Virus record (IMG/VR): IMGVR_UViG_3300044801_000124
Location: 1 to 33,428 of that record
Source: a virus
Length of the DNA: 33,428 nt
Strand: one strand, 5' to 3'
Within the stretch, counting starts at the first letter, position 1, and the number at the start of each line of letters is the position of its first letter. A program made the translations under genes and the position numbers. Positions 1,379 through 32,879 of this stretch are shown here, in pieces. Under the pieces are notes generated by a model that was not told the DNA's origin, ran no database searches, and saw only the letters and a program-made list of their open reading frames with translations.

Positions 1379-1671
1379 TCGCTCTTGAAGAACACGCGCC
1401 ACTCCTTTACCGCGGCCTCGCGCTCCTTGTCATACCGCTTGTCGTAGGGCGTCCCGCCCGTCTTCTTCCTCGGGTTCTCCCGCAGGTCGGCCGCCAGCCC
1501 AGTGACGTACCTCTGCCACGCCCCGCTCATCGCAGCGTGGTACTTCGCGTTAGCCTCGTCGTGAGCCTTGTGGAACGCCGCCTCGCGGGCCTGCTCCGCC
1601 TGCGCCGTCCTGTCCACGGGGGCGACCACGATCGCGTCCAGGGCCCTCGTTTTCCCGAGCTTCTTCCCCAT
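1375..1671 (-). CDS. hypothetical helical basic protein, minus strand
   Basis: 98 residues from the ATG at 1671 (a TTG three codons upstream is an alternative start). The protein is helical and charged (AQAEQAREAAFHKAHDEANAKY and a KKTGGTPYDKRYDKEREAAVKEW tail region). Its codons end overwhelmingly in G/C, matching native phage genes, which is the main reason to accept it although it is antisense to its neighbours. It is convergent with the TonB-C-like gene, and its start abuts the start of the HNH endonuclease gene on the other strand. An ATAAATAC element lies upstream on the minus strand. Function unknown. Confidence 0.65.
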   Translation of the reverse strand: MGKKLGKTRALDAIVVAPVDRTAQAEQAREAAFHKAHDEANAKYHAAMSGAWQRYVTGLAADLRENPRKKTGGTPYDKRYDKEREAAVKEWRVFFKSD

Positions 1672-2071
1672 GTTGAACAATACTCAGTATTTATGCCAAA
1701 TAGACAAAAGGCAGTACAACGGAAAGAAGAAGAGACCGTACGAGTCTCTTTACAACCATCTCCTTGCGGTAGCACGCCTCAAAAAACCGCCTGACCTCGT
1801 TACCCTCACCTTTGAGGACTTCGTCAAACTGACGGAGATCAAGACCTGTTCATACTGCCAAGACCCGGTCACGTGGGCGGAGTTCAACCGGCACAAAAAC
1901 GGAGCACAGTACAACCTGGATCGCAAGGACAACTCAGTGGGCTACACGCGGGACAATGTAGCCGTGTGCTGCATGCCCTGTAATCGAACTAAGGCCCATC
2001 GTTTTTCTCACGACGAGTTCAAAGTGATGATGAACGCTTTGCGCGAGTTCCGCAGGGCACCGAGTATTTAG
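1670..2071 (+). CDS. HNH homing-type endonuclease
   Basis: 133 residues from the ATG at 1670. The C-terminal half is a zinc-bound HNH nuclease: CSYC, then YNLDRKDNSVGYTRDNVAVCC and MPCNRTK, i.e. the two CxxC pairs that hold the fold and an xDxxD/N...N active-site pattern. The N-terminal part is basic and probably contacts DNA. It is clearly AT-richer than its neighbours (codons such as aaa, gta, ttt are frequent), which marks it as acquired. It sits in the intergenic space between the divergent minus-strand gene and the gene at 2076; its stop is only 4 nt before that gene's ATG. Free-standing endonuclease genes of this kind spread by cutting relatives that lack them. Confidence 0.85.
   Translation: MLNNTQYLCQIDKRQYNGKKKRPYESLYNHLLAVARLKKPPDLVTLTFEDFVKLTEIKTCSYCQDPVTWAEFNRHKNGAQYNLDRKDNSVGYTRDNVAVCCMPCNRTKAHRFSHDEFKVMMNALREFRRAPSI
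1687..1694 (-). promoter_or_regulatory. T4-type late-promoter-like octamer
   Basis: On the minus strand this reads ATAAATAC, about 15 nt upstream of the ATG of the minus-strand gene. It resembles the T4-type late element TATAAATA. A similar octamer, CTAAATAC, occurs on the minus strand at 2071-2064, just beyond the HNH gene, which could be the original copy separated by the insertion. No mapping data; motif match only. Confidence 0.35.
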
Positions 2072-3843: not shown

Positions 3844-4893
3844 ATGGCAATCGTTCTGACACAGGGGATGCAGACCGGCGCGGCGGACCTGGCGATCCTG
3901 GTCCGGGACGCCTCCGGGAACCTCGTCGACCCCGTCTCGATAAGCTACACCATCTACAAGATCAAGGACCTGGTGCCAACCAAGCCGACCGTGGCGTACG
4001 AGTACGACCTGCACCAGCCCCTCAACATGGAGGGCGGCCCGCCGCTGCCCCCGGAGGGCTCCACCCTGGTCAGCCAGCCCCAGCAGACCCCCATCAGGGC
4101 GGGCGTGGGCACCTTCTACGCGCAGTTCACCATCCCGACGACCTGGAAGGGCGTCTACAAGATCGTCTGGACCCTCCAGCAGTACGCGGGCAACTGCCCC
4201 GCGAACTTCGTCCACATGGACTTCGTCGTGCAGAGCGTGGACCCGGCCGACCCCGCGTTCGAGGCCCCGTCCATGATCATCGGGCCGAACCCGAGCCTGC
4301 TCAACCAGTCCGCGCTGCTCGGCCTCGGGCAGATCACGGCCGCGCAGGCGGCCAAGGCCGTGCGCTTCGTGCGCGAGCTGATCTCGGACACGAACCCCGA
4401 CAGGAACTACCACTTCAGGCCCCCCACTCCCGGCAAGGTCGTCTCCAACTACACGACCCGCGTCGGCTTCATCTGGCTGGACAGCACGATCCTGATCAAC
4501 CTGGCGATCTCGATCTCGAAGCTGAACCTGCACAACCCGATGAACTACTTCAACTGGACGCTGGCCACGATCCCGATGGACTGGGGCAACATCGCCGCGA
4601 TCGGCGCGGCGTCGCTCTGCCTCAGCGGCGAGTCCGCCCGCTGGGCGGCCGACGAGTTCGGCTACTCGCTCAATGGCGTGTCGCTGGACATCAACAAGTC
4701 GGCGCTGTACCAGTCGCTCGCGCAGACCTACGACCAGCAGTTCAGCACGATGGCACCGCTCGTCACGGCGAACCGCCCGTTCAGCGCGGGGTTGAGACAG
4801 CAGAGATGGTTGCTTGGGGCTTTTCTTCCTTTTCCCTTTATCTGGCCGCTACTTATGGAGCTATTTCGCATACTCCAGCATGGTTTGTCATAG
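3844..4893 (+). CDS. virion structural protein, 3' end disturbed
   Basis: 349 residues as read. Residues 1-150 are beta-rich and Ig-like (LAILVRDASGNLVDPVSISY, then GVGTFYAQFTIPTTWKGVYK); the middle is helical (ITAAQAAKAVRFVREL). A good ribosome binding site (AGGGAGA) precedes the start. Up to about 4790 codons end in G/C. After that the frame reads an AT-rich, Leu/Phe-rich tail that looks non-native. Another frame from 4791 reads VETAEMVAWGFSSFSLYLAA and on to a TAA at 4902, which is far more protein-like. A missing base in the GGGG run at 4788-4791, or a -1 slip there, would join the two. The IsrB element starts right at this end. By position it may be a neck or baseplate component; that is inference. 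Confidence 0.7.
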   Translation: MAIVLTQGMQTGAADLAILVRDASGNLVDPVSISYTIYKIKDLVPTKPTVAYEYDLHQPLNMEGGPPLPPEGSTLVSQPQQTPIRAGVGTFYAQFTIPTTWKGVYKIVWTLQQYAGNCPANFVHMDFVVQSVDPADPAFEAPSMIIGPNPSLLNQSALLGLGQITAAQAAKAVRFVRELISDTNPDRNYHFRPPTPGKVVSNYTTRVGFIWLDSTILINLAISISKLNLHNPMNYFNWTLATIPMDWGNIAAIGAASLCLSGESARWAADEFGYSLNGVSLDINKSALYQSLAQTYDQQFSTMAPLVTANRPFSAGLRQQRWLLGAFLPFPFIWPLLMELFRILQHGLS

Positions 4894-4894
4894 A

Positions 4895-4912
4895 CCCAGA
4901 CTAAAGTCTGGG
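4895..4912 (+). repeat. left-end hairpin of the IsrB element
   Basis: CCCAGACT / AGTCTGGG, an 8-bp inverted repeat with a 2-nt loop. The stem is close to the right-end hairpin (CCCAGAG / CTCTGGG), and its first 12 bases recur exactly at 21583-21594. Such subterminal hairpins are recognised by Y1 transposases in this superfamily. Confidence 0.7.
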
Positions 4913-5106
4913 CTTGGGGAAGCCTGACCAGCAGGCGGAAGCAAGTTAAACCTGTGCACTAGACAAGTCGAGACTGGTATCCAATCCAGTTCGCAAACTG
5001 AATCGACTGGACGTGGTAGTCCACAGAATGCTGAGAATGCTTCTCTAGTTTTCAGCCACTTCTTCGGGCAGTGTCGAAGAGATGTACAAAGGAGGGCTTA
5101 CCGCCC
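4895..5106 (+). ncRNA. putative omega-RNA (HEARO-type) of the IsrB element
   Basis: The 210 nt between the left end and the isrB start codon are noncoding and densely structured. A closing stem AGTCGA / TCGACT (about 4965-5009) encloses CTGG...CCAG and CAGTT...AACTG hairpins; GTGG/CCAC and GGGC/GCCC hairpins follow, the last next to the start codon. In IscB/IsrB loci the guide RNA lies directly upstream of the gene and carries its guide at the 5' end, taken from the flank outside the left end, here the bases before about 4893. I see some resemblance of ACTAGAC and GTAGTCC to group I core strands, but the context favours an omega-RNA. Confidence 0.55.
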
Positions 5107-6075
5107 ATGCAATTTGTCCCGGTTGTCCAACAAAATCCGCTGATGCCGACCACGGCAAACCGTGCGGCATCATGGATCAAAACCCGCAAGGCAACGCCGT
5201 TCTGGAAGCGAGGGATATTCTGCGTTCGTCTAAATGCGGAACCCTCAGCACGTAACAAACAATCCATCGCTCTTGGGATAGACCCCGGAAGCAAGTTCGA
5301 GGGTTTTACCGTCAAGTCGGAAGCCCACACGTTCGAGAATCTGAATGCGGACGCGGTAACGTGGGTCAAAGATGCGGTTGAAACTCGCCGTAATCTTCGC
5401 AAATCGCGGCGCAACCGTAAAACTCCGTATCGCCAATGTCGTTGGAATCGCGGCGTTGGGTTCAGGCTGCCGCCTTCCACAAGAGCCAGATGGGGCTGGA
5501 AACTACGTATTGTGAATTGGCTCAGCAAGCTGTTCCCCATCTCGTGCTTCGTGGTGGAGGACATCAAAGCGAAAACCAAAGGGCAGCGCAAGTGGGACGC
5601 GTCGTTCAGCCCGTTGGAAGTTGGTAAGAAGTGGTTTTACGAGCAACTTGGCAAGTTGGGTCGCGTGGAGACCAAGCAAGGATTTGAGACATTTGAAATG
5701 CGGAACCTATCGGGGCTCAAAAAACTTAAGGACAAAGCGTCCAAAAGTTTCTATTCGCATTGCGTGGATTCTTGGGTACTCGCCAATTGGTTTGTCGGTG
5801 GACATACCAAGCCCGACCTTGAGCGGGTGCGCTGCGTAACTCCACTCAGGTTTCACCGCAGACAGTTGCATGTGCAGAATCCAGCAAAAGGCGGCATTAG
5901 GAAACCTTACGGAGGAACACGCAGCATGGGTTTCACTCGTGGCTCTTTGGTCAAGCATATTAGCAAGGGTCTCACCTATGTCGGTGGAACAAGGGTGGGA
6001 AAACCAGCCTGCACGATGTTTCCACAGGCAGGCGGTTGGGTCAAAATTTCAAGCCAGAAGATTGCAAATTTCTGA
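5107..6075 (+). CDS. isrB: IsrB-like RNA-guided nickase (PLMP + RuvC, no HNH)
   Basis: 322 residues from the ATG at 5107, preceded by AAAGGAGG. Domain order: PLMP domain (VVQQNPLMPTTANRA, about residues 5-40), RuvC-I with catalytic Asp in ALGIDPGSKFEGFT, an Arg-rich bridge helix (ETRRNLRKSRRNRKTPYR), RuvC-II FVVEDIKAKTK, then only about 60 residues to RuvC-III SHCVDSWVLANW, and a C-terminal domain with RRQLHVQNPAKGGIRKPYGG and GFTRGSLV. The PLMP domain with the tail marks the IscB/IsrB group (ancestors of Cas9); the missing HNH insert between RuvC-II and -III marks IsrB. Members of this type nick DNA guided by an omega-RNA. All three RuvC acidic positions are present, so it may be active. Confidence 0.85.
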   Translation: MQFVPVVQQNPLMPTTANRAASWIKTRKATPFWKRGIFCVRLNAEPSARNKQSIALGIDPGSKFEGFTVKSEAHTFENLNADAVTWVKDAVETRRNLRKSRRNRKTPYRQCRWNRGVGFRLPPSTRARWGWKLRIVNWLSKLFPISCFVVEDIKAKTKGQRKWDASFSPLEVGKKWFYEQLGKLGRVETKQGFETFEMRNLSGLKKLKDKASKSFYSHCVDSWVLANWFVGGHTKPDLERVRCVTPLRFHRRQLHVQNPAKGGIRKPYGGTRSMGFTRGSLVKHISKGLTYVGGTRVGKPACTMFPQAGGWVKISSQKIANF

Positions 6076-6103
6076 GTTTCAACACGTGGAGGACGGTGCT
6101 CCT

Positions 6104-6122
6104 CCCAGAGTAAAACTCTGGG
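6104..6122 (+). repeat. right-end hairpin of the IsrB element
   Basis: CCCAGAG / CTCTGGG, a 7-bp stem with a TAAAA loop, preceded by GTGCTCCT and followed by TTTCCGCC. It pairs in sequence style with the left-end hairpin and with the relic at 21598-21615. Confidence 0.65.
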
Positions 6123-6142
6123 TTTCCGCCGCTAAATTTTCG

Positions 6143-8506
6143 ATGATCACTAATCTTCTAGTTCTTAACTCGTCATACGTCGGAAGCCGCGACCTGTGGT
6201 GGGCCGAGGACGAGGACGCCAAGGTCGGCTACAACATCTACCGTGCCTTCGACCACCCATCCAACTGGGCCAGGCTGAACTCCTCGCCGTGGCTCGGGCA
6301 CTTCTACCGCGACATGTCCTCGCTTGAGCAGGTGACCTACACCGCGCAGCCAGCGGACTTCATCGAGCGCGGCGAGCTCGGGCGCTGGGCGTTCCGCCTG
6401 CCCAACACGCCTTACGCCACGGTGGACGCGGCCAGGGTCGTGGTCTCCAACAGCCCCGACGACGTGAGCGTGACCGTGTCCGTCTCCGGCTACCCGGCGA
6501 TCGACGGGCAGACGATCAGGCCCGTCAGGGTGGATGGCTTCGACCGCACGGTCTGGATGCAGATGGACAACACGCTGGCGCAGGGCGGCGCTGTCAGCGA
6601 CACGGCGCTCGTGAACGCGGGCAACGTGAGCGTGGCGGACTACTCCGAGATCACGCTCTGGCAGGTGACCTACAAGAGGCTGCTCAACTACGTCGACATC
6701 TACGCGTCGCTCAACCGGACGTACTATTGCTATTCGGATGACACTGAAGTCTTCACGAAGGACGGGTGGAAGCTGTTCACGGAATGCCAAAAAGGGGATT
6801 TGTTCGCTACTCGCAGGATTCAAACCAAAGAGTTCGAGTGGCAACAGGCGGACGGGTTTTTTAAGGCTCGCTATGACGGGGACTTAGTGCATTTTTATGG
6901 TCAAAGCATGGACCAATTGGTTACCCCCAATCACAGGATGCTGGTCGATTCCTTACCAGCCAAACTCGGTGGGCGCGGGCTGCCCAAGAAACGGGAACAC
7001 GTAATTGAAGCCGTTGACCTAGCAGCCGCAGCCACGGAGAATACGGGCATAGCGACAACTTCTGTATGGGCTGGAACTCAGTTAGGCCAAATGATTTTTG
7101 GTGGTAAACGTCGTCGCATTTTTGGGACTGTTCCCCGCAAGGTTGTCTTTTCAGGGGACGAGTTTTGCGCGTTCATGGGCATGTACTTGGCTGAAGGCTC
7201 GATTTTGTACGGCAACAACGGGTTCATGATTTCGCAACCGTGCGACGCTCGCGGATCGCGAGAATTGTACGCCTCTTTGCTGTTTAGGGTATTCGGGGAA
7301 GACAGTGTAACCGAGGATGATCGAGGGCTGGTGGTTCATTCGGCTGCTATGGGCGAGTACCTCCGTAAGTTTGGGCACGCTCATGAAAAATTCGTACCTG
7401 ATGAGATACGGGAAGCTGAACCGCATCAGCTTGAGATTTTTTGGAAATACTACTACGCCGGAGATGGCGCAGCCCATGGGGACAAACGAGGTACGCAGCA
7501 AGCATTTACCGTTTCGAAGCGATTGGCTGACCATTTGACTGAAGTTATACAAAAGATGGGTGGCTCCAGCACGGCCTGCATAAAACCTGCCAGCGTCGGG
7601 GAAATACGAGGGCGCAAAATCTCGTGCAGGCAGGGGTATTTTGTGTCTCGCCATGCTCGCAAATCTGGGTACACAGCCTGTTGGAAAATTGAAAATGTGG
7701 AATACCACGGGGATGTTTTCTGCGTCTCAGTGCCAAATATGTTTCTATACGTGCGCAGGAACGGAAAAGCATGTTGGAGCGGGAATACGGTCGTGCCGGT
7801 CGGCGAGAAGGGCGAGTGCCACGAGCCGGGCGCTCCGGGCACGGTCGTCAGGAACACGCAGGAGGTCGACGAGATCGACTGGATTTACGCGGAGATGGTG
7901 CGGCGCAACCAGTTCCTCTTCGAGATCGGCGGCGGGGAGCCAGCGTACTGCATGTTCAGGAAGTGGCGCGGCGAGAGGTGCGGCTGCGTGTACGGCACGG
8001 AGCAGCCGAAGCACGGGTGCCCGTCCTGCTACGAGACGGGGTTCGTCGGCGGCTACATCGGCCCGTACGACTTCGTGTTCGTCCCGCCGGACTCCGCGAT
8101 CACCCGCGAGATCACCGAGGGCGGCATCAAGACGACCCGCGACTCCCGCGCCTACCTGACGCGGACGCCGATCGTGCAGAACGGCGACCTCATCGTCAGG
8201 CGCAACGGCGACCGCATGGTCATCAGCAACGTGGTCTACAAGATGCCGAGGGGGATCATCCTCCAGCAGGACTTCACCGTCTCGCTGCTCCCGCCCGGCG
8301 ACACGCGCTACCTGATCCCGGTGGTCAACACGGGGCTGCCCACGCTCTACAACCCGGTCGTGCGGCGCGACCCGCTCGACGGGAAGGGCGGCGGCGAGCC
8401 AGTGTTCGACCCGCGCACGGTCCCCGCGGTCAACGGCGGCAAGGACTGGGAGAACAAGAACGTGCAGATCGGCAGGACGGTCACGTTCGGGCAGATTCAG
8501 ACCTAG
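6143..8506 (+). CDS. virion structural protein containing an intein
   Basis: 787 residues before splicing; 434 after removal of the intein (residues 196-548). The N-extein begins MITNLLVLNSSYVGSRDLWW and has a fibronectin-III-like segment (KVGYNIYRAFDHPSNWARLN, then HFYRD) common in large-phage virion proteins. The C-extein carries a Cys-rich knot (YCMFRKWRGERCGCVYG, then CPSCYETGFVGGYIG) that probably binds zinc, then beta-rich sequence. The ATG at 6143 is chosen because the frame upstream runs into the IsrB element; no ribosome binding site is visible there, perhaps displaced by the insertion. The first about 35 nt are AT-rich, then composition returns to native. Role (neck, baseplate or head-tail joining) is inferred from position only. 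Confidence 0.75.
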   Translation: MITNLLVLNSSYVGSRDLWWAEDEDAKVGYNIYRAFDHPSNWARLNSSPWLGHFYRDMSSLEQVTYTAQPADFIERGELGRWAFRLPNTPYATVDAARVVVSNSPDDVSVTVSVSGYPAIDGQTIRPVRVDGFDRTVWMQMDNTLAQGGAVSDTALVNAGNVSVADYSEITLWQVTYKRLLNYVDIYASLNRTYYCYSDDTEVFTKDGWKLFTECQKGDLFATRRIQTKEFEWQQADGFFKARYDGDLVHFYGQSMDQLVTPNHRMLVDSLPAKLGGRGLPKKREHVIEAVDLAAAATENTGIATTSVWAGTQLGQMIFGGKRRRIFGTVPRKVVFSGDEFCAFMGMYLAEGSILYGNNGFMISQPCDARGSRELYASLLFRVFGEDSVTEDDRGLVVHSAAMGEYLRKFGHAHEKFVPDEIREAEPHQLEIFWKYYYAGDGAAHGDKRGTQQAFTVSKRLADHLTEVIQKMGGSSTACIKPASVGEIRGRKISCRQGYFVSRHARKSGYTACWKIENVEYHGDVFCVSVPNMFLYVRRNGKACWSGNTVVPVGEKGECHEPGAPGTVVRNTQEVDEIDWIYAEMVRRNQFLFEIGGGEPAYCMFRKWRGERCGCVYGTEQPKHGCPSCYETGFVGGYIGPYDFVFVPPDSAITREITEGGIKTTRDSRAYLTRTPIVQNGDLIVRRNGDRMVISNVVYKMPRGIILQQDFTVSLLPPGDTRYLIPVVNTGLPTLYNPVVRRDPLDGKGGGEPVFDPRTVPAVNGGKDWENKNVQIGRTVTFGQIQT
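6728..7786 (+). mobile_element. intein 1 with LAGLIDADG endonuclease
   Basis: 353 residues. It starts at the Cys of CYSDDTEVFTKDGWKLFTE (block A), has block B LVTPNHRML with the TxxH histidine, two LAGLIDADG motifs (CAFMGMYLAEGSI and FWKYYYAGDGA), and block F/G VEYHGDVFCVSVPN...GKACWSGN, with terminal Asn and Thr as the first C-extein residue. The penultimate residue is Gly instead of the usual His, which is tolerated in some inteins but can slow splicing. Codon use is AT-richer than the exteins and changes sharply at both ends. Splicing would join NRTYY to TVVPV. Confidence 0.9.
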
Positions 8507-9382: not shown

Positions 9383-10111
9383 ATGGTTGTCTATCGCAGA
9401 ACCAATACGAAAAACGGGAAAGTCTACATCGGCAAGACTACGCGCACAGCCACGCAGCGTTGGACTAGTTTGTTAGCCGAAGTCAAACGCGGCGGCACGA
9501 ATCCTATTCACAACGCTATCCGCAAGTACGGTGCTGACGCCTTCGTCACCGACGTTATCTACGAAGCGAAGACCTTTGACGAGCTCAACGCGATGGAGAC
9601 CTTCTTCGTTGTCCTGCACCAATCCCGCAAGACGGAAAACGGGTACAACCTCACTCTTGGCGGGGACGGCGCGTCACCGGGTGAGCTGAATCCCATGTGG
9701 GGGAAGACGCACACAGATGAAGTTAAGGCTAAATTACGTGCGTTGCGAGTAGGAACGAAGAACACCCCTGAGTCAAATGAAAAACGCCGCCAAGCAGAAC
9801 TTGGTTCACAAAATCATTTTTACGGTAAGACACACTCGACGGAACGAGCACTTGAAGGCTGTCGAAAAGGCGGCCGTTCTCATTTAGGAAAAACGAGACC
9901 AATGGAAGTCGGTCAAAAAATTAGTAAGGCACTCACAGGGATTGTGAGATCAGAAGCAACACGGAAGCGTATCAGTCAGGCGAAGCTCGGCCAAGGCCTC
10001 GGTCGAAAGCACACGCCTGAAGCAATCGAACGTATACGTGAAATTAAACGCCTATGGTGGGCGCAACGCAAAGGGGGCAAAGCGACTGTAAGTTCTTTGT
10101 TATCAACGTAA
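9383..10111 (+). CDS. GIY-YIG homing endonuclease with NUMOD3 repeats
   Basis: 242 residues. The N-terminal nuclease domain has VVYRRTNTKNGKVYIGKTTR (the GIY...YIG strands), NAIRKYGADAF and the catalytic-type Glu in NAMETFFV, then ENGYNLTLGGDG. The C-terminal half is a chain of NUMOD3 DNA-binding repeats (NPMWGKTHTDEVKAKL, NHFYGKTHSTERA, SHLGKTRPMEV, LGRKHTPEAI). This is the layout of I-TevI-like and SegA-like free-standing phage endonucleases. It is markedly AT-richer than its neighbours. Its 3' end overlaps the currently predicted 5' end of the next structural gene by 58 nt. Confidence 0.9.
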   Translation: MVVYRRTNTKNGKVYIGKTTRTATQRWTSLLAEVKRGGTNPIHNAIRKYGADAFVTDVIYEAKTFDELNAMETFFVVLHQSRKTENGYNLTLGGDGASPGELNPMWGKTHTDEVKAKLRALRVGTKNTPESNEKRRQAELGSQNHFYGKTHSTERALEGCRKGGRSHLGKTRPMEVGQKISKALTGIVRSEATRKRISQAKLGQGLGRKHTPEAIERIREIKRLWWAQRKGGKATVSSLLST

Positions 10112-12210: not shown

Positions 12211-12242
12211 AGGCTTACATTTTCCGACTTCCTCAGTATTAA
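12207..12242 (+). other. 11-codon start relic before a homing gene
   Basis: The ATG overlaps the previous stop (ATGA) and reads MKAYIFRLPQY then stop, just upstream of the GIY-YIG gene. Residues Y4, F6 and a polar residue 7 align with the start of the FmdB-like gene beyond the endonuclease ([M]AIYEFQCEC), so this is probably the original first codons of that gene or of a relative's copy. Confidence 0.4.
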
Positions 12243-12257
12243 GTAGGAGAGGTCGAA

Positions 12258-12869
12258 ATGTACATCTATCTAATCGTCAACCGCGCCACGGGGAAGTACT
12301 ACGTCGGCCAGCACAAGGGCACAAACCTGCAACACTACCTGCAACAGAAGTTCTACGAGGCGGAGCATCGCCTGAAAGCTCGCTCCTACCTCTACGCCTC
12401 CATCCGCAAGCACGGCCGCGCCGCTTTCACCATCCACGCCCTTCTCTCTGAAGTCCAAACTAGGGCGGAGCTTGACGCCTATGAGCGCGACTTCATCGCT
12501 TTCCTCCGCTCCCGGGACCCCGGGCACGGGTACAACATCCAGCGCGGCGGAGAAGGGTTCACGGGTCCGCATTCCGAGGAGGCCCGCAAGAAGGCGAGCC
12601 AGAACAACTCTCGCTATTGGGCGGGTAAGAAACGACCCGCAGAGACGTATGAAAAGATCATTGCGACCAGGCGCAAAAACGGGAGAATGATGCCCTCGGA
12701 CTGGAACAGGGACCCGGAGATTATCGCCAAAAGGGTGGCTACTCGCAGGGCCAAAGGCAACTACGGGGTGCACCGCGTCGGCATCAGGCACACCCCAGAA
12801 ACCATAGAGAAAATGAGAGTCGCGCAGAGAAAACGGCTTTCAACTCCTACTACAGAAGGGCGGGGCTAG
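12258..12869 (+). CDS. GIY-YIG homing endonuclease
   Basis: 203 residues, preceded by GTAGGAGAGG, a strong ribosome binding site. N-terminal nuclease: MYIYLIVNRATGKYYVGQHK (GIY-YIG strands), an inserted AEHRLKARSYLYASIRKHG helix with the usual I.KHG, AAFTIHALL, and ERDFIAFLRSRDPGHGYNIQ ending the fold. The C-terminal part has NUMOD-like repeats (GPHSEEARKKASQN, GIRHTPETIEKM). It fills the space between a large virion gene and the FmdB-like gene, whose start codon it seems to have removed. Confidence 0.88.
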   Translation: MYIYLIVNRATGKYYVGQHKGTNLQHYLQQKFYEAEHRLKARSYLYASIRKHGRAAFTIHALLSEVQTRAELDAYERDFIAFLRSRDPGHGYNIQRGGEGFTGPHSEEARKKASQNNSRYWAGKKRPAETYEKIIATRRKNGRMMPSDWNRDPEIIAKRVATRRAKGNYGVHRVGIRHTPETIEKMRVAQRKRLSTPTTEGRG

Positions 12870-13276: not shown

Positions 13277-13849
13277 ATGCGTGGAGTGAAGCTCGATCTG
13301 ACGGGGCGGAGGTTCGGCAAGCTCCGGGTTATCGGCGAGTCTGAGGGTCGCAGGCGGGGCAACATCTGCTGGCGCGTCCAATGCGACTGCGGGAGCCCGG
13401 AGAAAGTCGTCACCGGGGCTGCGCTTGTCAGGGAAACGAAGCCTACACGGGCCTGCGGCTGCGGTTGGAGGAAGCCCTCCGGGGAATCCGCGAGGCATCG
13501 TGCACTGCTTAACTACAAGCGGAACGCCAGAACTCGAAGCATCGTTTGGGGGCTGTCCGACGAGCGGTTCGCCACGCTGACGCGAACCGACTGCCACTAC
13601 TGCGGCAGGCCACCCGCAAATACCTGCTCTGACAGGGAAAGCAACGGCTCGTACACGTACAACGGCATCGACCGCAGGGACAACGGCCTAGGGTACGCAG
13701 AGGGGAATGCGCTCCCGTGCTGCAAGGTCTGCAACTGGGCCAAGGGCGGGATGTCCTACGACGATTTCATGGCCTGGGTGGGAGATTTGGTTCGCCACCA
13801 GGCACAAAAAACGACTTCAAATCCTCTAGTTAGAGGTCAGTCAGCCTAA
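13277..13849 (+). CDS. HNH homing endonuclease with N-terminal Zn/AP2-like domain
   Basis: 190 residues. The N-terminal domain DLTGRRFGKLRVIGES, then WRVQCDCGS and RACGCGWR is the DNA-binding module seen in many phage HNH proteins. The C-terminal nuclease has CHYCGRPP, SYTYNGIDRRDNGLGYAEGN and CCKVCNWAKGGMSYDDF, giving the zinc pairs and the D...N active-site pattern. It shares this whole layout with the HNH gene at 26069, so the two are paralogous or of one lineage. Its stop overlaps the ribosome binding site of the sheath gene (AAGGAG at 13848-13853), so it is inserted tightly upstream of the sheath. Confidence 0.88.
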   Translation: MRGVKLDLTGRRFGKLRVIGESEGRRRGNICWRVQCDCGSPEKVVTGAALVRETKPTRACGCGWRKPSGESARHRALLNYKRNARTRSIVWGLSDERFATLTRTDCHYCGRPPANTCSDRESNGSYTYNGIDRRDNGLGYAEGNALPCCKVCNWAKGGMSYDDFMAWVGDLVRHQAQKTTSNPLVRGQSA

Positions 13850-17608: not shown

Positions 17609-17635
17609 ATGCAGGTAAAGGCGAGTGATGATTAA
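17609..17635 (+). other. 8-codon start relic MQVKA... before an endonuclease VII gene
   Basis: A strong ribosome binding site (GGGGAAGGG) precedes ATG 17609, reading MQVKASDD then stop. The real gene beyond the endonuclease, at 18075, also begins MQVKA (GTG CAA GTT AAA GCG) with different wobble bases. This is the clearest case of a duplicated gene start on both sides of a homing gene. Confidence 0.65.
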
Positions 17636-18074
17636 GATTTGCAGGAAGTGTGAATCGGAAAAAGACCTTGATAAAGACTTTTTTCGAGATAGTTCTAGCG
17701 CTGATGGTCGCACGTTGCGGTGTAAGGCATGCCGGAAGGAGTACGCAGACAACCGTTATAAAGACCCGATGGTAAGAGCGTCTCTTATACAGGAAGCCTT
17801 GCGGAGAAACTGCAAACGTTTGTACGGCATCACGCTAGACGACAAGCAAGCGATGCTAGTGTCGCAAGGAACGAGATGCGCTTGTTGTGAAACAGACGAT
17901 CCGGGGAAGAAGGGCTGGGTTATAGATCACGACCATGTAACTAAGGGCGTGCGTGGTGTTGTATGCAACGCCTGCAACACCATATTAGGCATGGCTAAAG
18001 ACTCGGCAGAAAATTTGGAGAAAGCGATCCAGTACCTAAAACGTTTTCAGAAAGTTGCGGGAGTAGGTGCTTAA
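17628..18074 (+). CDS. endonuclease VII-type homing endonuclease
   Basis: 148 residues from ATG 17628 (GTG 17625 is an alternative). The N-terminal zinc finger is CRKCESEKDLDKDFF with a second CKACRKEYADNRYK. The C-terminal nuclease has CACCETDD, VIDHDHVTKGVRGVVCNACN and ILGMAKDSAENLEKAIQYL, which is the T4 endonuclease VII-type fold (DHDH catalytic motif, CxxC pairs). Such proteins serve as free-standing homing endonucleases in phages. The gene is strongly AT-rich compared with its neighbours and overlaps the MQVKA relic. Its stop is directly followed by the GTG of the next gene. Confidence 0.88.
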   Translation: MIKICRKCESEKDLDKDFFRDSSSADGRTLRCKACRKEYADNRYKDPMVRASLIQEALRRNCKRLYGITLDDKQAMLVSQGTRCACCETDDPGKKGWVIDHDHVTKGVRGVVCNACNTILGMAKDSAENLEKAIQYLKRFQKVAGVGA

Positions 18075-23909: not shown

Positions 23910-26069
23910 ATGCCTTTTAAGAAGACCGCGCAGGCGGTGATGACAGAGCCTCTCCTCAAGTCCTCGGACTGGGAGAAGATGTACGGCGACCGCGCCTTCC
24001 GCTCGTGCGCCCTGGACGGCGACCACCCGTTCTGCAAAACAGCGTCCCTCAAGACCGCTGCGGACTCCTCAAAGTATTTGCTTAGCCACTGCACGATCAT
24101 GGCGTCAGTGCAAACCGAGGAGGAGCCGTTCGACTACCTGATCAAGCCCGAGACCTCCCACCTCGTGAACAACAACGACGACGCCTGGACCAACGAGGTG
24201 CTGAAGCTCTCGCACCGCTCGTTCGTCGGCGCGTTCAACTTCGTCGAGCACTTCCAGAACAGCAAGTACGCGAAGGGCCACATCCTGGACGCCGTGCTCC
24301 GCAAGATCAACATCGCCGAGGGCGGCCAGATTTGGGTCTACTTCTGCGACATCCTGGTCGCCACGGACGTCACCCACGAGAAGCTGGTCGACGACATCCG
24401 CTCCGGCAGGGTCCGCTACCTCAGCATGGGCTGCGTGACCGACCTGGTTATCTGCTCCTACTGCGGCGGCCACGTCACGGACGCCAACACCTACTGCAAC
24501 CACCTTTCTTTTCAGAAGGGTACGTTCCTGGCGGACGACGACGGCATCCCGCGCCGCATCGCCGAGCTGTGCTTCCCGTCACCCACCAGAATCGTGATGC
24601 AAGACGGTTCCCGGAAAGCCATAAAGGATGTCCGTGAGGGGGACAGGATCATCACACACACGGGGAAAATACAGACCGTCACCAAAAAATATGTGCGCCC
24701 GTTCTCGGGCGACCTCACCGTGCTGGACATTCAAGGGCTTCCGCAAAAGCTGGCTTCGACGCCAAAGCACCCGTATTGGGTGATGACTCCGAGGGACAAG
24801 TGCACCTGTGGATGCGGACAAGCGCTGCCCCCAAAATACGTTTTTGGGCGCAAGGAGTACGGCAGGGCGTTTTTGCAGGGGCACAACCTATCCCTGGCGG
24901 CGGCGGTTGCTCCCGCCGTTGTTCCCACGGTTGTCCCAAAATTTGAGTTCAAGGAAGCACAGTGCATAAAGCAGGGCGACATAGTCGCCCTGCCCATACC
25001 CTCGGAAACCTTTACCCCGTCGGACACGGACGAGACCAGAGCCGAGATTTTGGGGTGGTTTCTGGCCGAAGGCAGCTACCTCAAGTACAAAAAAGACAGA
25101 GTGGGGGTCAGCTTCACCCTCAACGACAAGGATGAACAACAGTACGCCCTGCGGATCAAGACTGCGTTGGAGACGGCTTTCCCGCCCGAATTTTGGACCG
25201 GCAGCAAGCGCAGGACAAAATCCGCCAGAGTACACTCGTACCCTCGCCCAGAAGGCGGAAGAAAACTAGTAGTTTGTTACTCCAATAAGGCCGCCTCCCG
25301 CTGGCTTTACAGGCACGCCTCGGAATATGCGGGGCACAAAAAGTTGAGCGCCGGGGTGCTTTTGTGGGATCAAAAACTACAGCGAATTATGCTGGCGGCC
25401 TACGTGCACGGAGACGGCACCGTTGACAGTTTTGCCCGCCACAGCGCAAGTTCGGTCTCCGAGACCCTCATCAGCCAGATGCAGCTTGTCTCCGCCCGTT
25501 GCGGGGTGTGGAGCCGCAGGCAGGTGATTTTCGACGGCAAAGCGGTGCAGCTTGAGGAGGTTGTCGGCAAGGATCAACTACGCGACAACAGCAACTTCCG
25601 CCCCCTGCACACATTGCACTTCCAGCCGTGCGAAGAGACTACTGGTATCTTTCAAATGACTGAGCAAAAGGAGCGAGGCATCGGGCAGAAGTGGCGCAAA
25701 CAAGACAATTGCATGCTTTACCATGTCACGGGAGTAGGGCAGAAATTCTATGAAGGAGACGTGCACAACATAGAGGTAGAGGGGGACAACTCCTACCTCG
25801 TGGAGGGCATCGCGGTGCACAACTGCGGCCACAAGACCATGCCTAACGGCGGCGTGAAGTTCGTGGAGGCCTCCTGGGTCGCTACCCCGGCGTTCCCGGG
25901 CGCGGCGAAGAGGAACATCGTGGCGGAGGAGTGGGTGGGCCCGAGAACACGGTTCACTGAGTCAGCTTCAAAGTCAGCGAGTTTTGCTAAGGCCGCCTCC
26001 AAAGGAGTCTCATCGGAATTGAGTGACACCCTGCTTGACGCGGATTTTCGTGGAGGCTCACGACGTTAA
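23910..26069 (+). CDS. prohead-protease-like head maturation protein with intein
   Basis: 719 residues; 301 after removal of the intein (residues 221-638). The extein reads SFVGAFNFVEHFQNSKYAKG, GHILDAVLRKINI, a RYLSMGCVTDLVICSYCGG segment, YCNHLSF, and after the intein CGHKTMPNGGVKFVEASWVA with TPAFPGAAK. This set (SMGC, CSxCG, YCxHL, F.E.SWV.TPA) matches a family of phage head proteins annotated as capsid-maturation proteases in SPO1-like and other large phages; the zinc-type cysteines are part of it. Being just before the scaffold-like and capsid genes fits. I cannot prove the protease active site. The start has a ribosome binding site, AGAGGGGA. The last about 40 codons are AT-richer, next to the HNH gene. 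Confidence 0.65.
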   Translation: MPFKKTAQAVMTEPLLKSSDWEKMYGDRAFRSCALDGDHPFCKTASLKTAADSSKYLLSHCTIMASVQTEEEPFDYLIKPETSHLVNNNDDAWTNEVLKLSHRSFVGAFNFVEHFQNSKYAKGHILDAVLRKINIAEGGQIWVYFCDILVATDVTHEKLVDDIRSGRVRYLSMGCVTDLVICSYCGGHVTDANTYCNHLSFQKGTFLADDDGIPRRIAELCFPSPTRIVMQDGSRKAIKDVREGDRIITHTGKIQTVTKKYVRPFSGDLTVLDIQGLPQKLASTPKHPYWVMTPRDKCTCGCGQALPPKYVFGRKEYGRAFLQGHNLSLAAAVAPAVVPTVVPKFEFKEAQCIKQGDIVALPIPSETFTPSDTDETRAEILGWFLAEGSYLKYKKDRVGVSFTLNDKDEQQYALRIKTALETAFPPEFWTGSKRRTKSARVHSYPRPEGGRKLVVCYSNKAASRWLYRHASEYAGHKKLSAGVLLWDQKLQRIMLAAYVHGDGTVDSFARHSASSVSETLISQMQLVSARCGVWSRRQVIFDGKAVQLEEVVGKDQLRDNSNFRPLHTLHFQPCEETTGIFQMTEQKERGIGQKWRKQDNCMLYHVTGVGQKFYEGDVHNIEVEGDNSYLVEGIAVHNCGHKTMPNGGVKFVEASWVATPAFPGAAKRNIVAEEWVGPRTRFTESASKSASFAKAASKGVSSELSDTLLDADFRGGSRR
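24570..25823 (+). mobile_element. intein 2 with LAGLIDADG endonuclease and zinc insert
   Basis: 418 residues. Block A starts CFPSPTRIVMQDGSRKAIKD with EGDRIITHTG; block B is LASTPKHPYWV (TxxH). A CTCGCGQALPPKYVFG...GRAFLQGHN segment forms an inserted zinc-like module. LAGLIDADG motifs are AEILGWFLAEGSY and IMLAAYVHGDGTVD. The C-terminal part is FYEGDVHNIEVEGDNSYLVE with GIAVHN, and the +1 residue is Cys. All splicing residues (Cys1, block B His, penultimate His, terminal Asn, Cys+1) are present, so it should splice fully. It interrupts the extein inside the Cys/His cluster, right before CGHK. Confidence 0.93.
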
Positions 26070-26650
26070 TGGCGAACCCTTTTATTGACAGAACCGGGCA
26101 CATAGTAGGCCGCCTTACCGTTCTTGGTAAGGCCGAGTCCCGTCGAGACAAGTCTGGCAAAGGACTTGTGTACTGGGCGGTTGTTTGCGCGTGCGGAAAA
26201 CACAAAGAGGTTTCTAACACAAACATCACAAGAACACGGAGCTGCGGGTGCCTCCGCAAGGGCAATCCGAATAACCCTAACTACCTGCCGCTGGGAATGT
26301 CCGCAAGAAATTCTCTCCTGGCCGACTACAAAAAGAGCGCAAGGCGTCGCGGGCTTGAGTGGCGGCTGACCGACGACTGGTTCTTCGGCCTGACCCAGGA
26401 AAACTGCCACTACTGCGGGACGGCTCCAGGCGCGACGCACAACAGCGTTGGGAAGAACGGCACATACACCTACAACGGGATTGACCGCAAAAACAACTTT
26501 TTGGGCTACTTACATGACAACGTCGCCGCCTGCTGCAAATTCTGCCAATACGCCAAGCGCGACCTGCCCTACGCGGAGTTCCTGGAGCATGTCAAGAGGG
26601 CGGGCAGGTACCAGTTGAATCAAGAGACTATGAAAGCCTCTATAGGATAG
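26069..26650 (+). CDS. HNH homing endonuclease with N-terminal Zn/AP2-like domain
   Basis: 193 residues. The N-terminal domain reads DRTGHIVGRLTVLGKAESRR, then WAVVCACGKH and RSCGCLRKG. The nuclease part reads CHYCGTAPG, GTYTYNGIDRKNNFLGYLHD and CCKFCQYAKRDLPYAEF. It is the paralog of the gene at 13277, with the same module order and spacing. Its ATG overlaps the stop of the protease-like gene (TAATG), so it is expressed by coupling. It occupies the gap between protease-like and scaffold-like genes. Confidence 0.88.
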   Translation: MANPFIDRTGHIVGRLTVLGKAESRRDKSGKGLVYWAVVCACGKHKEVSNTNITRTRSCGCLRKGNPNNPNYLPLGMSARNSLLADYKKSARRRGLEWRLTDDWFFGLTQENCHYCGTAPGATHNSVGKNGTYTYNGIDRKNNFLGYLHDNVAACCKFCQYAKRDLPYAEFLEHVKRAGRYQLNQETMKASIG

Positions 26651-28960: not shown

Positions 28961-28990
28961 AAAAGCCTCCGAGAAATCGGAGGCTTTTTC
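28961..28990 (+). terminator. Rho-independent terminator, probably bidirectional
   Basis: AAAGCCTCCGA / TCGGAGGCTTT, an 11-bp stem with a GAAA loop and flanking A and T tracts, works in both directions. It ends the scaffold-like gene and the minus-strand GIY-YIG gene, whose stop lies in its T tract. Confidence 0.9.
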
Positions 28991-29600
28991 ATTGCTCACG
29001 GTAATTCAGGCACCATCGCCTATGGCCGCAGTAGACGCCCTTCGTGACCTGCTCGAACCTCGTGCCGCAGTCTGGGCACTCGTAGTCCCGCAGCCTGGCG
29101 TTCTCAGCTTTGTTCACAGCCCTGGCGACACGTGCTTGCGCTTCACGACGCTCATCGTCCCAGGACGCGGCCATCTTCTCGCGTTGCGCGGCGGGCTTGG
29201 GCTTGCCCCTATGCGTTAAGCTAGCTACCGCCTTTTGCCTCTCGGACGCCGGTCGCCCCAAGGCTTTTGCCCGAATTTTTTCGCATACTTCTGGTGTTCC
29301 AGCGACGCCGTCGCCGCCGGACGTCATGTTGTAGCCGTTCGGGGCGGCGGTGCCCAGGGCCAAAATCCACAGTTTCTCCAGTTCGTTCAGGGCTTCCGGG
29401 GACGCGGCCTCCGCCAGCTCTTCAGCGCGAAAGTTCTCAGGCTTGTGACCGCGAATGGCGCGGTAGAAGTATTCCTGGTGTTTGGGGTTCCTGGCGTTGG
29501 CGAGATGCTCCTTCCAGCGCCTTTGGACGGTCTTCTCCGTCTTGCCCACGTACATTTTTCCGTCGATAAGGTTCGTTACCAGGTACACGAGCATGCCCAT
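28989..29600 (-). CDS. GIY-YIG homing endonuclease, minus strand
   Basis: 203 residues from ATG 29600 (or Met-3). Nuclease: MLVYLVTNLIDGKMYVGKTE (GIY-YIG), QRRWKEHLANAR, YFYRAIRGHKPENF, and the Glu in LNELEKLWI, then NGYNMTSGGDG. The C-terminal half has NUMOD-like helices and ends in a zinc finger (YECPDCGTRFEQ with CGHRRWCLN). It is more GC-rich than the other homing genes, hence perhaps resident longer. It lies between the scaffold-like gene and the intron-containing gene, opposite to both, so it must have its own promoter upstream of 29600. Confidence 0.88.
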   Translation of the reverse strand: MGMLVYLVTNLIDGKMYVGKTEKTVQRRWKEHLANARNPKHQEYFYRAIRGHKPENFRAEELAEAASPEALNELEKLWILALGTAAPNGYNMTSGGDGVAGTPEVCEKIRAKALGRPASERQKAVASLTHRGKPKPAAQREKMAASWDDERREAQARVARAVNKAENARLRDYECPDCGTRFEQVTKGVYCGHRRWCLNYREQ

Positions 29601-31694: not shown

Positions 31695-32879
31695 ATGGAC
31701 TTCATGGCGCACCTTGCAGCCTTGGGGGCTGACCAAGCCTGGATTGGGCAGTACTTGGATTTTTTGACATCGACTATTCCCCCGGAGGGGCGTAGCCACA
31801 GGCATCACATTCTTCCTCGTGCCCTGTTCCCAGAATTCGCTAAGTTAAAAATGTACCCGATGAACTGCAAGCGCCTTACGCCTTCGGATCATTTTGTGGC
31901 ACACTATTACCTCTACCGCGCCCTGCCGAAAAACCCCGTGGCTTATTTGTCATTCCTCAAGATGGCTTCCGTGACGCGCCTGAGTGCGCTCGTGCAAAGC
32001 GGATATGACGAAACCTTGGTGAGGGAGATGTCCCTTGAGTACGAACGCATACGATCCGGTGCGGCGTCGCTGGACGGTTGGTCCCACATTTACAGGGGCA
32101 AGCTGCGCACAGTGTGCCCCGAGCAATTTTTGGAAAAAATGAAGGCAGACGGATGGACACAAGAAGCCCCGCCCCGGCAATGGGTGCACAAAGGGAAGGA
32201 GTCTTGCCGCATTCCTGTAGAGAAAACCCAAGAATATCTGGAACAGGGATTCGTTCTTGGGCGTCCCGCATTTCATACCCCTGAAAGCAAGAAACGCATT
32301 AGCGAGAAAACCTCCGCCCAGCATCAAGCAGAAGCAACCAAGGGCGAAGAGGCGTATTCATACATGCCGCATGGAGAAGAACACGTGTGGTTCGGTAAGG
32401 AACGGGACGAAAGAACTAAAGGCAAAATCCGCAAGACTCTAACTGGAGTGTCGAAACCGCCCAGTCGTCCTATACATCAAGGCATCGCCAAAGGCAAGCA
32501 TTGGTCTTGGTCTGAAGAAGCCAAGCACGCCCGTTCCGAGTCCATGAAAGGCAAAAAGCCAACCAACGGGTTGACGATGGAAGGAAGGACCCATTCCGAG
32601 GAAACAAAGGAACTGATGTCCGAGTCGCACAAGGAGTTTTACGCCAGCAACCCGGACGGTGTAGCCGCCCTTAATGCCGCCCGTCCCCGTGGCGAGAACC
32701 ACGTCTGGTTCGGCAAGGAGCGGGACAAGAAGACACGGGATGCGATTTCCAAGTCGCTGGAAGGAAAAACCCAGTCAAAAGCGACAAGGCAGACGCGGTC
32801 GGAGAGCCTAAAGGCGTTTCATGCCGCCAAAAAAAGCAGAAAAAACAGGCAATCTTGGTATCTAAGTAGAGGAACATAA
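31695..32879 (+). CDS. HNH-type homing endonuclease with NUMOD3 repeats
   Basis: 394 residues. The N-terminal domain has SHRHHILPRALFPEF and NCKRLTPSDHFVAHYYLYRA, the H-H...N...H pattern of the T4 Mob-type HNH nucleases. The C-terminal half is rich in NUMOD3 DNA-binding repeats: EEHVWFGKERDERTKGKIRK, KGKHWSWSEEAKHARS, GRTHSEETKELMSES and ENHVWFGKERDKKTRDAISK, the first and last being near copies. It is AT-richer than the neighbours. Its stop overlaps the ATG of the next phage gene (TAATG), so that gene now depends on it for translation. Confidence 0.8.
   Translation: MDFMAHLAALGADQAWIGQYLDFLTSTIPPEGRSHRHHILPRALFPEFAKLKMYPMNCKRLTPSDHFVAHYYLYRALPKNPVAYLSFLKMASVTRLSALVQSGYDETLVREMSLEYERIRSGAASLDGWSHIYRGKLRTVCPEQFLEKMKADGWTQEAPPRQWVHKGKESCRIPVEKTQEYLEQGFVLGRPAFHTPESKKRISEKTSAQHQAEATKGEEAYSYMPHGEEHVWFGKERDERTKGKIRKTLTGVSKPPSRPIHQGIAKGKHWSWSEEAKHARSESMKGKKPTNGLTMEGRTHSEETKELMSESHKEFYASNPDGVAALNAARPRGENHVWFGKERDKKTRDAISKSLEGKTQSKATRQTRSESLKAFHAAKKSRKNRQSWYLSRGT

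What the first reader, a model, noticed from the sequence alone, without database searches (positions are those of the whole stretch)
4893..6131. IsrB (HNH-less Cas9 ancestor) element in a phage structural operon
The protein has the PLMP domain, all three RuvC motifs, the Arg-rich bridge helix and the C-terminal IscB/IsrB domain, but no HNH insert. A structured 210-nt RNA candidate lies directly upstream, and the ends carry transposase-type hairpins. IsrB systems are rarer than TnpB and IscB, and their presence in a lytic-type phage virion cluster raises the question whether it serves as a homing nickase. Its guide would come from about 4873-4892, i.e. the phage's own flanking gene sequence, so it would be directed at the empty allele in competing phages.
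Basis: partly seen in the sequence, partly recalled or inferred. Interest (0 to 1): 0.7.

Follow-up and report, generated by a model that had tools for sequence, protein, structure and literature searches.

The report
Phage IsrB transposon at gene boundary
A small mobile element carrying an RNA-guided DNA-nicking enzyme (IsrB, a Cas9 relative) sits exactly at the stop/start junction of two phage structural genes; relatives show it inserts just before start codons and keeps a copy of its landing site as its guide, though this copy's protein-coding frame is broken near its end.

Summary
The finding is real. The protein (5107-6075) is an IsrB, and a HEARO/omega-RNA (4887-~5119) lies directly upstream, supported by strong covariation. 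The guide is ~4867-4886, not 4873-4892. It breaks no gene. The predicted empty site, GGTTT|ATGATC, puts the upstream gene's stop codon TGA over the downstream start codon ATG.

Relatives settle the anatomy. L106 is a natural element-free allele of L007; it matches all 26 nt before the L007 element and continues directly into ATGA. Five copies in one 327-kb phage contig share identical ends, and ATGA follows each. ATGA or NTGG is the IsrB target-adjacent motif, and the 3' base tracks the TAM-reading residue (Gln with A; Arg/Lys with G).

Correction: the window copy has a 1-nt frameshift at ~5997-6003. It replaces the end of the TAM-interacting domain, so as assembled it is probably inactive.

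Best explanation: an IS200/IS605-type OMEGA transposon, mobilised by TnpA in trans. Its RNA-guided nickase targets the empty site and favours element retention and spread among co-replicating phage genomes. Homing is inferred, not shown. New member of a known kind.

The parts
4887..6142 (+). IsrB (OMEGA) mobile element, left end GTCATAG, right end TTTTCG, inserted between GGTTT and ATGATC
   Evidence: Ends aligned with 13 elements in viral contigs, the natural filled/empty pair L007/L106 and five copies in one phage with identical ends.
4867..4886 (+). Guide segment CGCATACTCCAGCATGGTTT, taken from the 3' end of the upstream gene
   Evidence: Position directly 5' of the omega-RNA scaffold. 20-nt length as in DtIsrB (PMC9581776).
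4887..5119 (+). HEARO/omega-RNA scaffold; its 3' end overlaps the start of the IsrB ORF
   Evidence: Rfam RF02033 E 0.0079 full length; covariation; fold z -2.2.
4895..4912 (+). Left-end hairpin CCCAGACTAAAGTCTGGG (SL1 of the omega-RNA)
   Evidence: Sequence; 6 of 7 pairs compensatory.
5107..6075 (+). IsrB open reading frame (322 aa), intact PLMP/RuvC/bridge helix, frameshifted C-terminus
5997..6003 (+). Frameshift point: G_GGA_AAA; the conserved C-terminal frame continues in the -1 frame from here
   Evidence: No stable downstream structure.
6003..6113 (+). Out-of-frame conserved C-terminus (TSLHDVSTGRRLGQNFKPEDCKFLSFNTWRTVLLPE*), the TAM-interacting region
   Evidence: R and Q correspond to DtIsrB R323/Q326.
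6104..6122 (+). Right-end hairpin CCCAGAGTAAAACTCTGGG
   Evidence: same position in relatives.
6143..6146 (+). ATGA: target-adjacent motif of the empty site and start codon of the downstream gene
   Evidence: NTGA/NTG TAM of IsrBs.
3844..4893 (+). Upstream gene (annotated 'head-tail connector protein' in Tunturi_5), whole; its stop TAG now lies inside the element
6143..8506 (+). Downstream virion gene, start codon directly at the element's right end; contains an intein-like insert (~6.7-7.8 kb)

Best explanation
4887-6142 is an IS200/IS605-type OMEGA transposon carrying isrB and its omega-RNA and no transposase gene. It inserted without target duplication between ...CAGCATGGTTT and ATGATC, the overlapping stop/start (TTATGA) of two phage structural genes. 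The omega-RNA therefore begins with ~20 nt of the upstream gene, and the pre-insertion site is exactly guide plus ATGA TAM. In the intact system, IsrB-omegaRNA would nick element-free copies of that site, either the donor site left after excision or element-free genomes in a co-infection. Replication or recombination repair from an element-bearing genome then restores or copies the element. TnpA supplied in trans (by other phage copies or the host) moves it to new ATGA sites. Shown by sequence: element ends, insertion rule, guide/TAM match to an empty allele of a sister element, omega-RNA covariation. Inferred: nicking, repair-driven spread, TnpA in trans. As assembled, the window copy is probably inactive.
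For: IsrB identity. Omega-RNA. Natural pair: L007 has GATGCACAGCGTAAACAAGCAGGAGG|element|ATGATG; L106 has the same 26 nt followed directly by ATGATG. Second orthologous site: L255-L257 run ...GTA|ATG uninterrupted, against L015 with the element in that place. Five copies 81-88% identical in one 327-kb phage contig with identical ends, different left flanks and ATGA at every right end, plus a Y1 transposase; two copies plus a transposase in another. Motif in 81 elements: ATGA 72/81 with a rule that fixed only ATG (or GTGA). Residue 326 tracks the fourth base: Gln A53/G10, Arg/Lys A1/G8, p 3e-5 under a rule blind to that base. It switches in separate lineages, e.g. L015 (R, ATGG) against its 87%-identical sister L014 (Q, ATGA). 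Q326 reads base 4 in DtIsrB, and Q326R accepts G. The reconstructed window site gives an in-frame TGA overlapping ATG. TnpB of the same transposon superfamily acts as a gene drive in plasmids (PMC11870625).
Against: No empty allele of this particular site was found. The window copy is frameshifted. L002-L004 carry an 80%-identical IsrB before the same downstream gene but with an unrelated left flank (guide), so same-site presence is not simple guide-directed homing. IsrB nicks rather than cuts, so strong homing is not guaranteed. Only sequence evidence.
Confidence: 0.75

Rival explanations
1. Passive passenger: a non-autonomous element moved by TnpA in trans that happens to tolerate gene boundaries; IsrB gives no homing advantage in phages, and start-codon bias is only survivorship in gene-dense genomes.
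For: Multiple copies at unrelated sites, some with TnpA. Bacterial copies show the same ATGA preference.
Against: The RuvC residues and TAM-reading residue are conserved, and the latter coevolves with the site, which a nuclease without function would not show.
Confidence: 0.17
2. Domesticated regulator: the element controls expression of the downstream virion gene (through the omega-RNA, or by translational coupling of IsrB to that gene).
For: In viral loci the IsrB stop lies within -4..+8 nt of the next start codon in 16/33 against 4/59 in bacterial loci.
Against: In the window the ORF stops 67 nt before the next gene (29 nt in the conserved frame); insertion sites differ between phages; multicopy.
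Confidence: 0.04
3. TnpB-type element or ordinary homing endonuclease, misread as IsrB.
For: The same junction hosts GIY-YIG and other homing genes in relatives.
Against: Sequence, fold, omega-RNA and TAM residue all place it with IsrB.
Confidence: 0.01
4. The window copy makes full-length IsrB by -1 ribosomal frameshifting at G_GGA_AAA, so it is active.
For: The heptamer is in the correct frame, and a -1 shift rejoins the conserved C-terminus at the same length.
Against: No stable downstream structure (z 0.2); the homologues in the alignment read through in one frame; a 1-nt loss in a homopolymer is a common mutation or assembly error.
Confidence: 0.08

Closest known systems
Desulfovirgula thermocuniculi IsrB (DtIsrB, PDB 8dmb; PMC9581776)
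   Same: PLMP-RuvC-bridge helix-RuvC-TI layout without HNH, HEARO-type omega-RNA, guide at the RNA's 5' end, NTGA TAM with R323/Q326 matching the RxxQ of this family.
   Different: Phage-borne, at a gene junction; the window copy has a frameshifted TI domain. About 30% identity in the fold alignment.
K2IsrB (IsrB from a viral metagenome contig; PMC9581776) and virus-associated HEARO systems (PMC9755519)
   Same: IsrB/HEARO nucleases already known from viral contigs (over 16% of HEARO fragments called viral or prophage); NTG TAM for K2IsrB.
   Different: Those reports centre on enzymes for editing. Here the natural insertion site, an empty allele and within-phage multicopy are described.
HEARO RNA, Rfam RF02033
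   Same: Full-length match at 4887-5119 with covarying helices. From memory, the 2009 description (paper not held here) noted insertion beside ATGA/GTGA.
   Different: Window and relatives score below Rfam's gathering cut-off: a diverged subgroup.
IS200/IS605 TnpB elements acting as gene drive (PMC11870625)
   Same: Same logic: guide copied from the flank, empty site targeted, element-positive copies favoured.
   Different: TnpB is a double-strand cutter with its guide from the other end of the element; IsrB is a nickase.
Phage homing endonucleases near essential genes (PMC10448857)
   Same: Free-standing nuclease gene between conserved phage genes.
   Different: Target specificity lies in an RNA guide, not in the protein.

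Membership tests
IsrB | PLMP domain, split RuvC, Arg-rich bridge helix, no HNH | tested here: met
IsrB | C-terminal TAM-interacting domain with the TAM-reading Arg and Gln | tested here: not met
   Present and conserved in the family, but out of frame in the window copy. The family fits; this copy as assembled lacks it, i.e. a broken member.
IsrB | Upstream HEARO/omega-RNA | tested here: met
IsrB | Target = guide + NTGA/NTG(G) TAM at the empty site | tested here: met
   Met for the family at sequence level; for the window site only by reconstruction.
IsrB | RNA-guided nicking of the non-target strand | not testable with these tools
   Needs biochemistry.
IS200/IS605-type transposon | Subterminal hairpins at both ends, no target-site duplication | tested here: met
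IS200/IS605-type transposon | TnpA (Y1) transposase | tested here: not met
   None in the 33-kb window record; over the family cut-off in 3 of 24 related phage records, none of them adjacent to isrB. Non-autonomous if a member; the window is a fragment.
TnpB | TnpB-type RuvC/zinc ribbon, guide at right end | tested here: not met
   IscB/IsrB only; omega-RNA at the left end.
Homing element | Biased inheritance into element-free genomes at the same site | not testable with these tools
   A filled/empty pair exists, but direction and bias need co-infection.

The most novel reading that the evidence does not exclude
Phage IsrB elements are a gene-boundary-specific RNA-guided drive. The TAM (NTGA/NTGG) is the start codon itself, often overlapping the upstream stop, so the guide covers the ribosome-binding site and stop/start region that phages cannot easily change. 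Right ends and the IsrB stop codon are adapted in phages to keep the downstream essential gene translated, and the TAM-reading residue coevolves with the start-codon context.
Probability: 0.35. Interest if true: 0.72.

Novelty: new member of a known kind. Interest (0 to 1): 0.5.

Why it matters
IsrB is the HNH-less relative of the Cas9 ancestor IscB, and why transposons keep an RNA-guided nickase is still open. Phage populations with filled and empty alleles of the same site give a natural system to test whether a nickase can drive inheritance. The site rule (insertion before ATGA start codons, TAM residue tracking the base) links the protein's target motif directly to where the element lands.

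Tried and rejected
- The first idea, an insertion inside one gene (intron or IStron), was dropped. The low-GC tail of the upstream gene (GAFLPFPFIWPLL...) is a natural C-terminus shared with L003, L039 and L097, and no group I intron was found.
- Degenerate search for the window's own empty site found L103, a chance match inside an unrelated coding region.
- The downstream gene of L001 had no relatives, and that of L017 only one distant one.
- Programmed frameshifting considered; no supporting structure.
- Automatic boundary calls were noisy: a lax rule picked wrong hairpins or NTG sites. One search is the cleanest rule blind to base 4 and still contains mis-picks among Gln cases. By eye the split is about 72:0 (Gln: A) against 1:7 (Arg/Lys: G), but that reading was not blind.
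- The 2009 HEARO paper is not in the held library.

Full report
WHAT IS THERE. The window is a 33,428-bp IMG/VR fragment of a tailed phage with tail-sheath and major-head genes. Its upstream gene is related to one of Tunturiibacter phage Tunturi_5, 309 kb. An ORF at 5107-6075 encodes a PLMP motif, three RuvC motifs and an Arg-rich bridge helix, with no HNH. Pfam gives RRXRR. NCBIfam gives IscB, partial and below cut-off. The best solved relative by sequence is DtIsrB (E 2e-33). An AlphaFold model of the 79%-identical homologue in L003, built from 15 family members, finds DtIsrB first (E 1e-26, TM 0.71/0.78). TnpB is not among the matches.

THE RNA. HEARO RF02033 covers 4887-5119 end to end at E 0.0079, below the gathering score. 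Twelve related left ends give a consensus with 33 pairs, 25 with compensatory changes. The covariation score is 0.644 against at most 0.156 when partners are slid, and none of 500 shuffles reaches it.

THE ENDS. Twenty IsrB relatives in viral contigs align to a common left end (GTCA) and a right end that stops directly before ATG. L007 and L106 are a natural pair. L106 reads GATGCACAGCGTAAACAAGCAGGAGG|ATGATGATGG uninterrupted; L007 has the same 26 nt, then the element, then ATGATGATGG. So there is no target duplication and no loss, and the sequence 5' of the omega-RNA is a copy of the empty site's protospacer. One 327-kb phage contig carries five copies 81-88% identical; all start GTCAATAACCC and end before ATGA, with five different left flanks. 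For the window this gives 4887-6142. Joining the flanks yields CAG CAT GGT TTA TGA TC, in which the upstream gene's stop TGA overlaps the downstream start ATG. With the element in place, the upstream gene instead ends ...GLS* at the TAG inside the element's first bases.

THE INSERTION RULE. With a rule requiring only ATG (or GTGA) at the right end, the site is ATGA in 24/30 viral and 48/51 bacterial elements. An ORF of at least 40 codons follows in 21/30 and 37/51, against about 30% for all ATGA in the same DNA. In DtIsrB, Q326 reads the fourth TAM base and Q326R admits G (PMC9581776). Here the equivalent residue tracks the insertion site: Gln with A (53) rather than G (10), Arg/Lys with G (8) rather than A (1), Fisher 3e-5 under a rule blind to that base. 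The switch occurs in separate lineages; L014 (Q, ATGA) and L015 (R, ATGG) are 87% identical sisters. Loci are not independent, so the p-value is indicative only. One clear exception exists (L152, R with ATGA).

THE WINDOW COPY. Relative to homologues one base is missing near 5997-6003. The conserved TAM-reading segment (TSLHDVSTGRRLGQNFKPEDCKFLSFNTWRTVLLPE) lies in the -1 frame, up to 6113. The ORF as it stands ends in unrelated residues. This may be decay, an assembly error or, less likely, frameshifting at G_GGA_AAA; no downstream structure supports the last.

MECHANISM. Established for the kind (PMC9581776): IsrB-omegaRNA nicks the non-target strand next to an NTGA/NTG TAM. Shown here at sequence level: guide and TAM equal the empty site. 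Inferred: nicking of element-free copies promotes restoration or copying from element-bearing genomes, as reported for TnpB in plasmids (PMC11870625). TnpA is absent from the window record and from most related phage records, but present in three, so mobilisation in trans is plausible. Same-site copies in L002-L004 have a different left flank and an IsrB about as similar as the copy in L001 at another site (80% and 79%), so they look like separate insertions before the same start codon rather than descent by homing.

PLACE AMONG RELATIVES. On a tree of 116 IsrBs from viral and bacterial contigs the window protein falls in a viral clade with L001 and L002 (support 0.94), then L149 and L005 (0.995); viral and bacterial copies are interleaved (at least 10 changes), which fits repeated exchange between phages and bacteria such as cyanobacteria and Chloroflexi.

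SELF-CHECK. No empty allele of the window's own site was found. Direction of change in L007/L106 (gain or loss) is unknown. The ATGA preference of HEARO elements is, from memory, already reported; the paper could not be read.

Noticed in passing
window 12226-12254, upstream of the GIY-YIG ORF 12258-12869; also L022, L023, L026, L031, L037, L038, L046: A conserved hairpin-like sequence (CTTTCTC-AGTATTAGACA-GAGAGG, variable arms that stay complementary) precedes GIY-YIG genes, with the ribosome-binding site in the 3' arm; reminiscent, from memory, of RBS-sequestering hairpins before T4 homing endonucleases.
   Followed up: partly
junction between upstream gene and downstream gene in L022-L101: Insertion hotspot: the gap between these two genes ranges from 38 nt to over 4 kb across related phages, with GIY-YIG genes in several, IsrB in L003/L004 and the window.
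   Followed up: partly
window 4795-4893; L039, L097, L003; separate mini-ORF in L073: Hydrophobic C-terminal extension of the upstream protein (GALIPFPFIWPQLVQMFHII...) present in few relatives; in L073 a similar peptide (MDYLFPLIWPLCNLYHVLR) is a separate tiny ORF.
   Followed up: no
L002, L013, L133, L148, L166, L007, L008, L011 and others: In viral loci the IsrB stop codon overlaps or abuts the downstream start codon in 16/33 cases against 4/59 in bacterial loci (p 7e-6, not corrected for relatedness), suggesting translational coupling in phages.
   Followed up: partly
right ends of cyanobacterial copies L195, L215, L222, L223 and phage copies L016 (reverse strand), L157: Shine-Dalgarno-like GGAG/AGGAGG lies at the element's right end a few bases before the target ATG, which might replace the displaced ribosome-binding site.
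   Followed up: no
window 6.7-7.8 kb and 24.6-25.9 kb: Two intein-like inserts in structural genes; the second has LAGLIDADG and Hint domains, the first matches only PHROG families that probably contain inteins.
   Followed up: no
window 1568-2071, 9383-10111, 12258-12869, 17625-18074, 28989-29600, 31695-32879; probable HNH-type at 13277-13849 and 26069-26650: Unusually many free-standing nuclease genes (endonuclease VII-like, GIY-YIG/NUMOD3, homing type) in 33 kb of structural operon.
   Followed up: no
L273-L277 (G022, 327-kb viral contig): Five IsrB copies, 81-88% identical, and a Y1 transposase in one phage contig; one copy lies before an HNH-type gene (MKRIDLTGQRFGKLTVI).
   Followed up: partly
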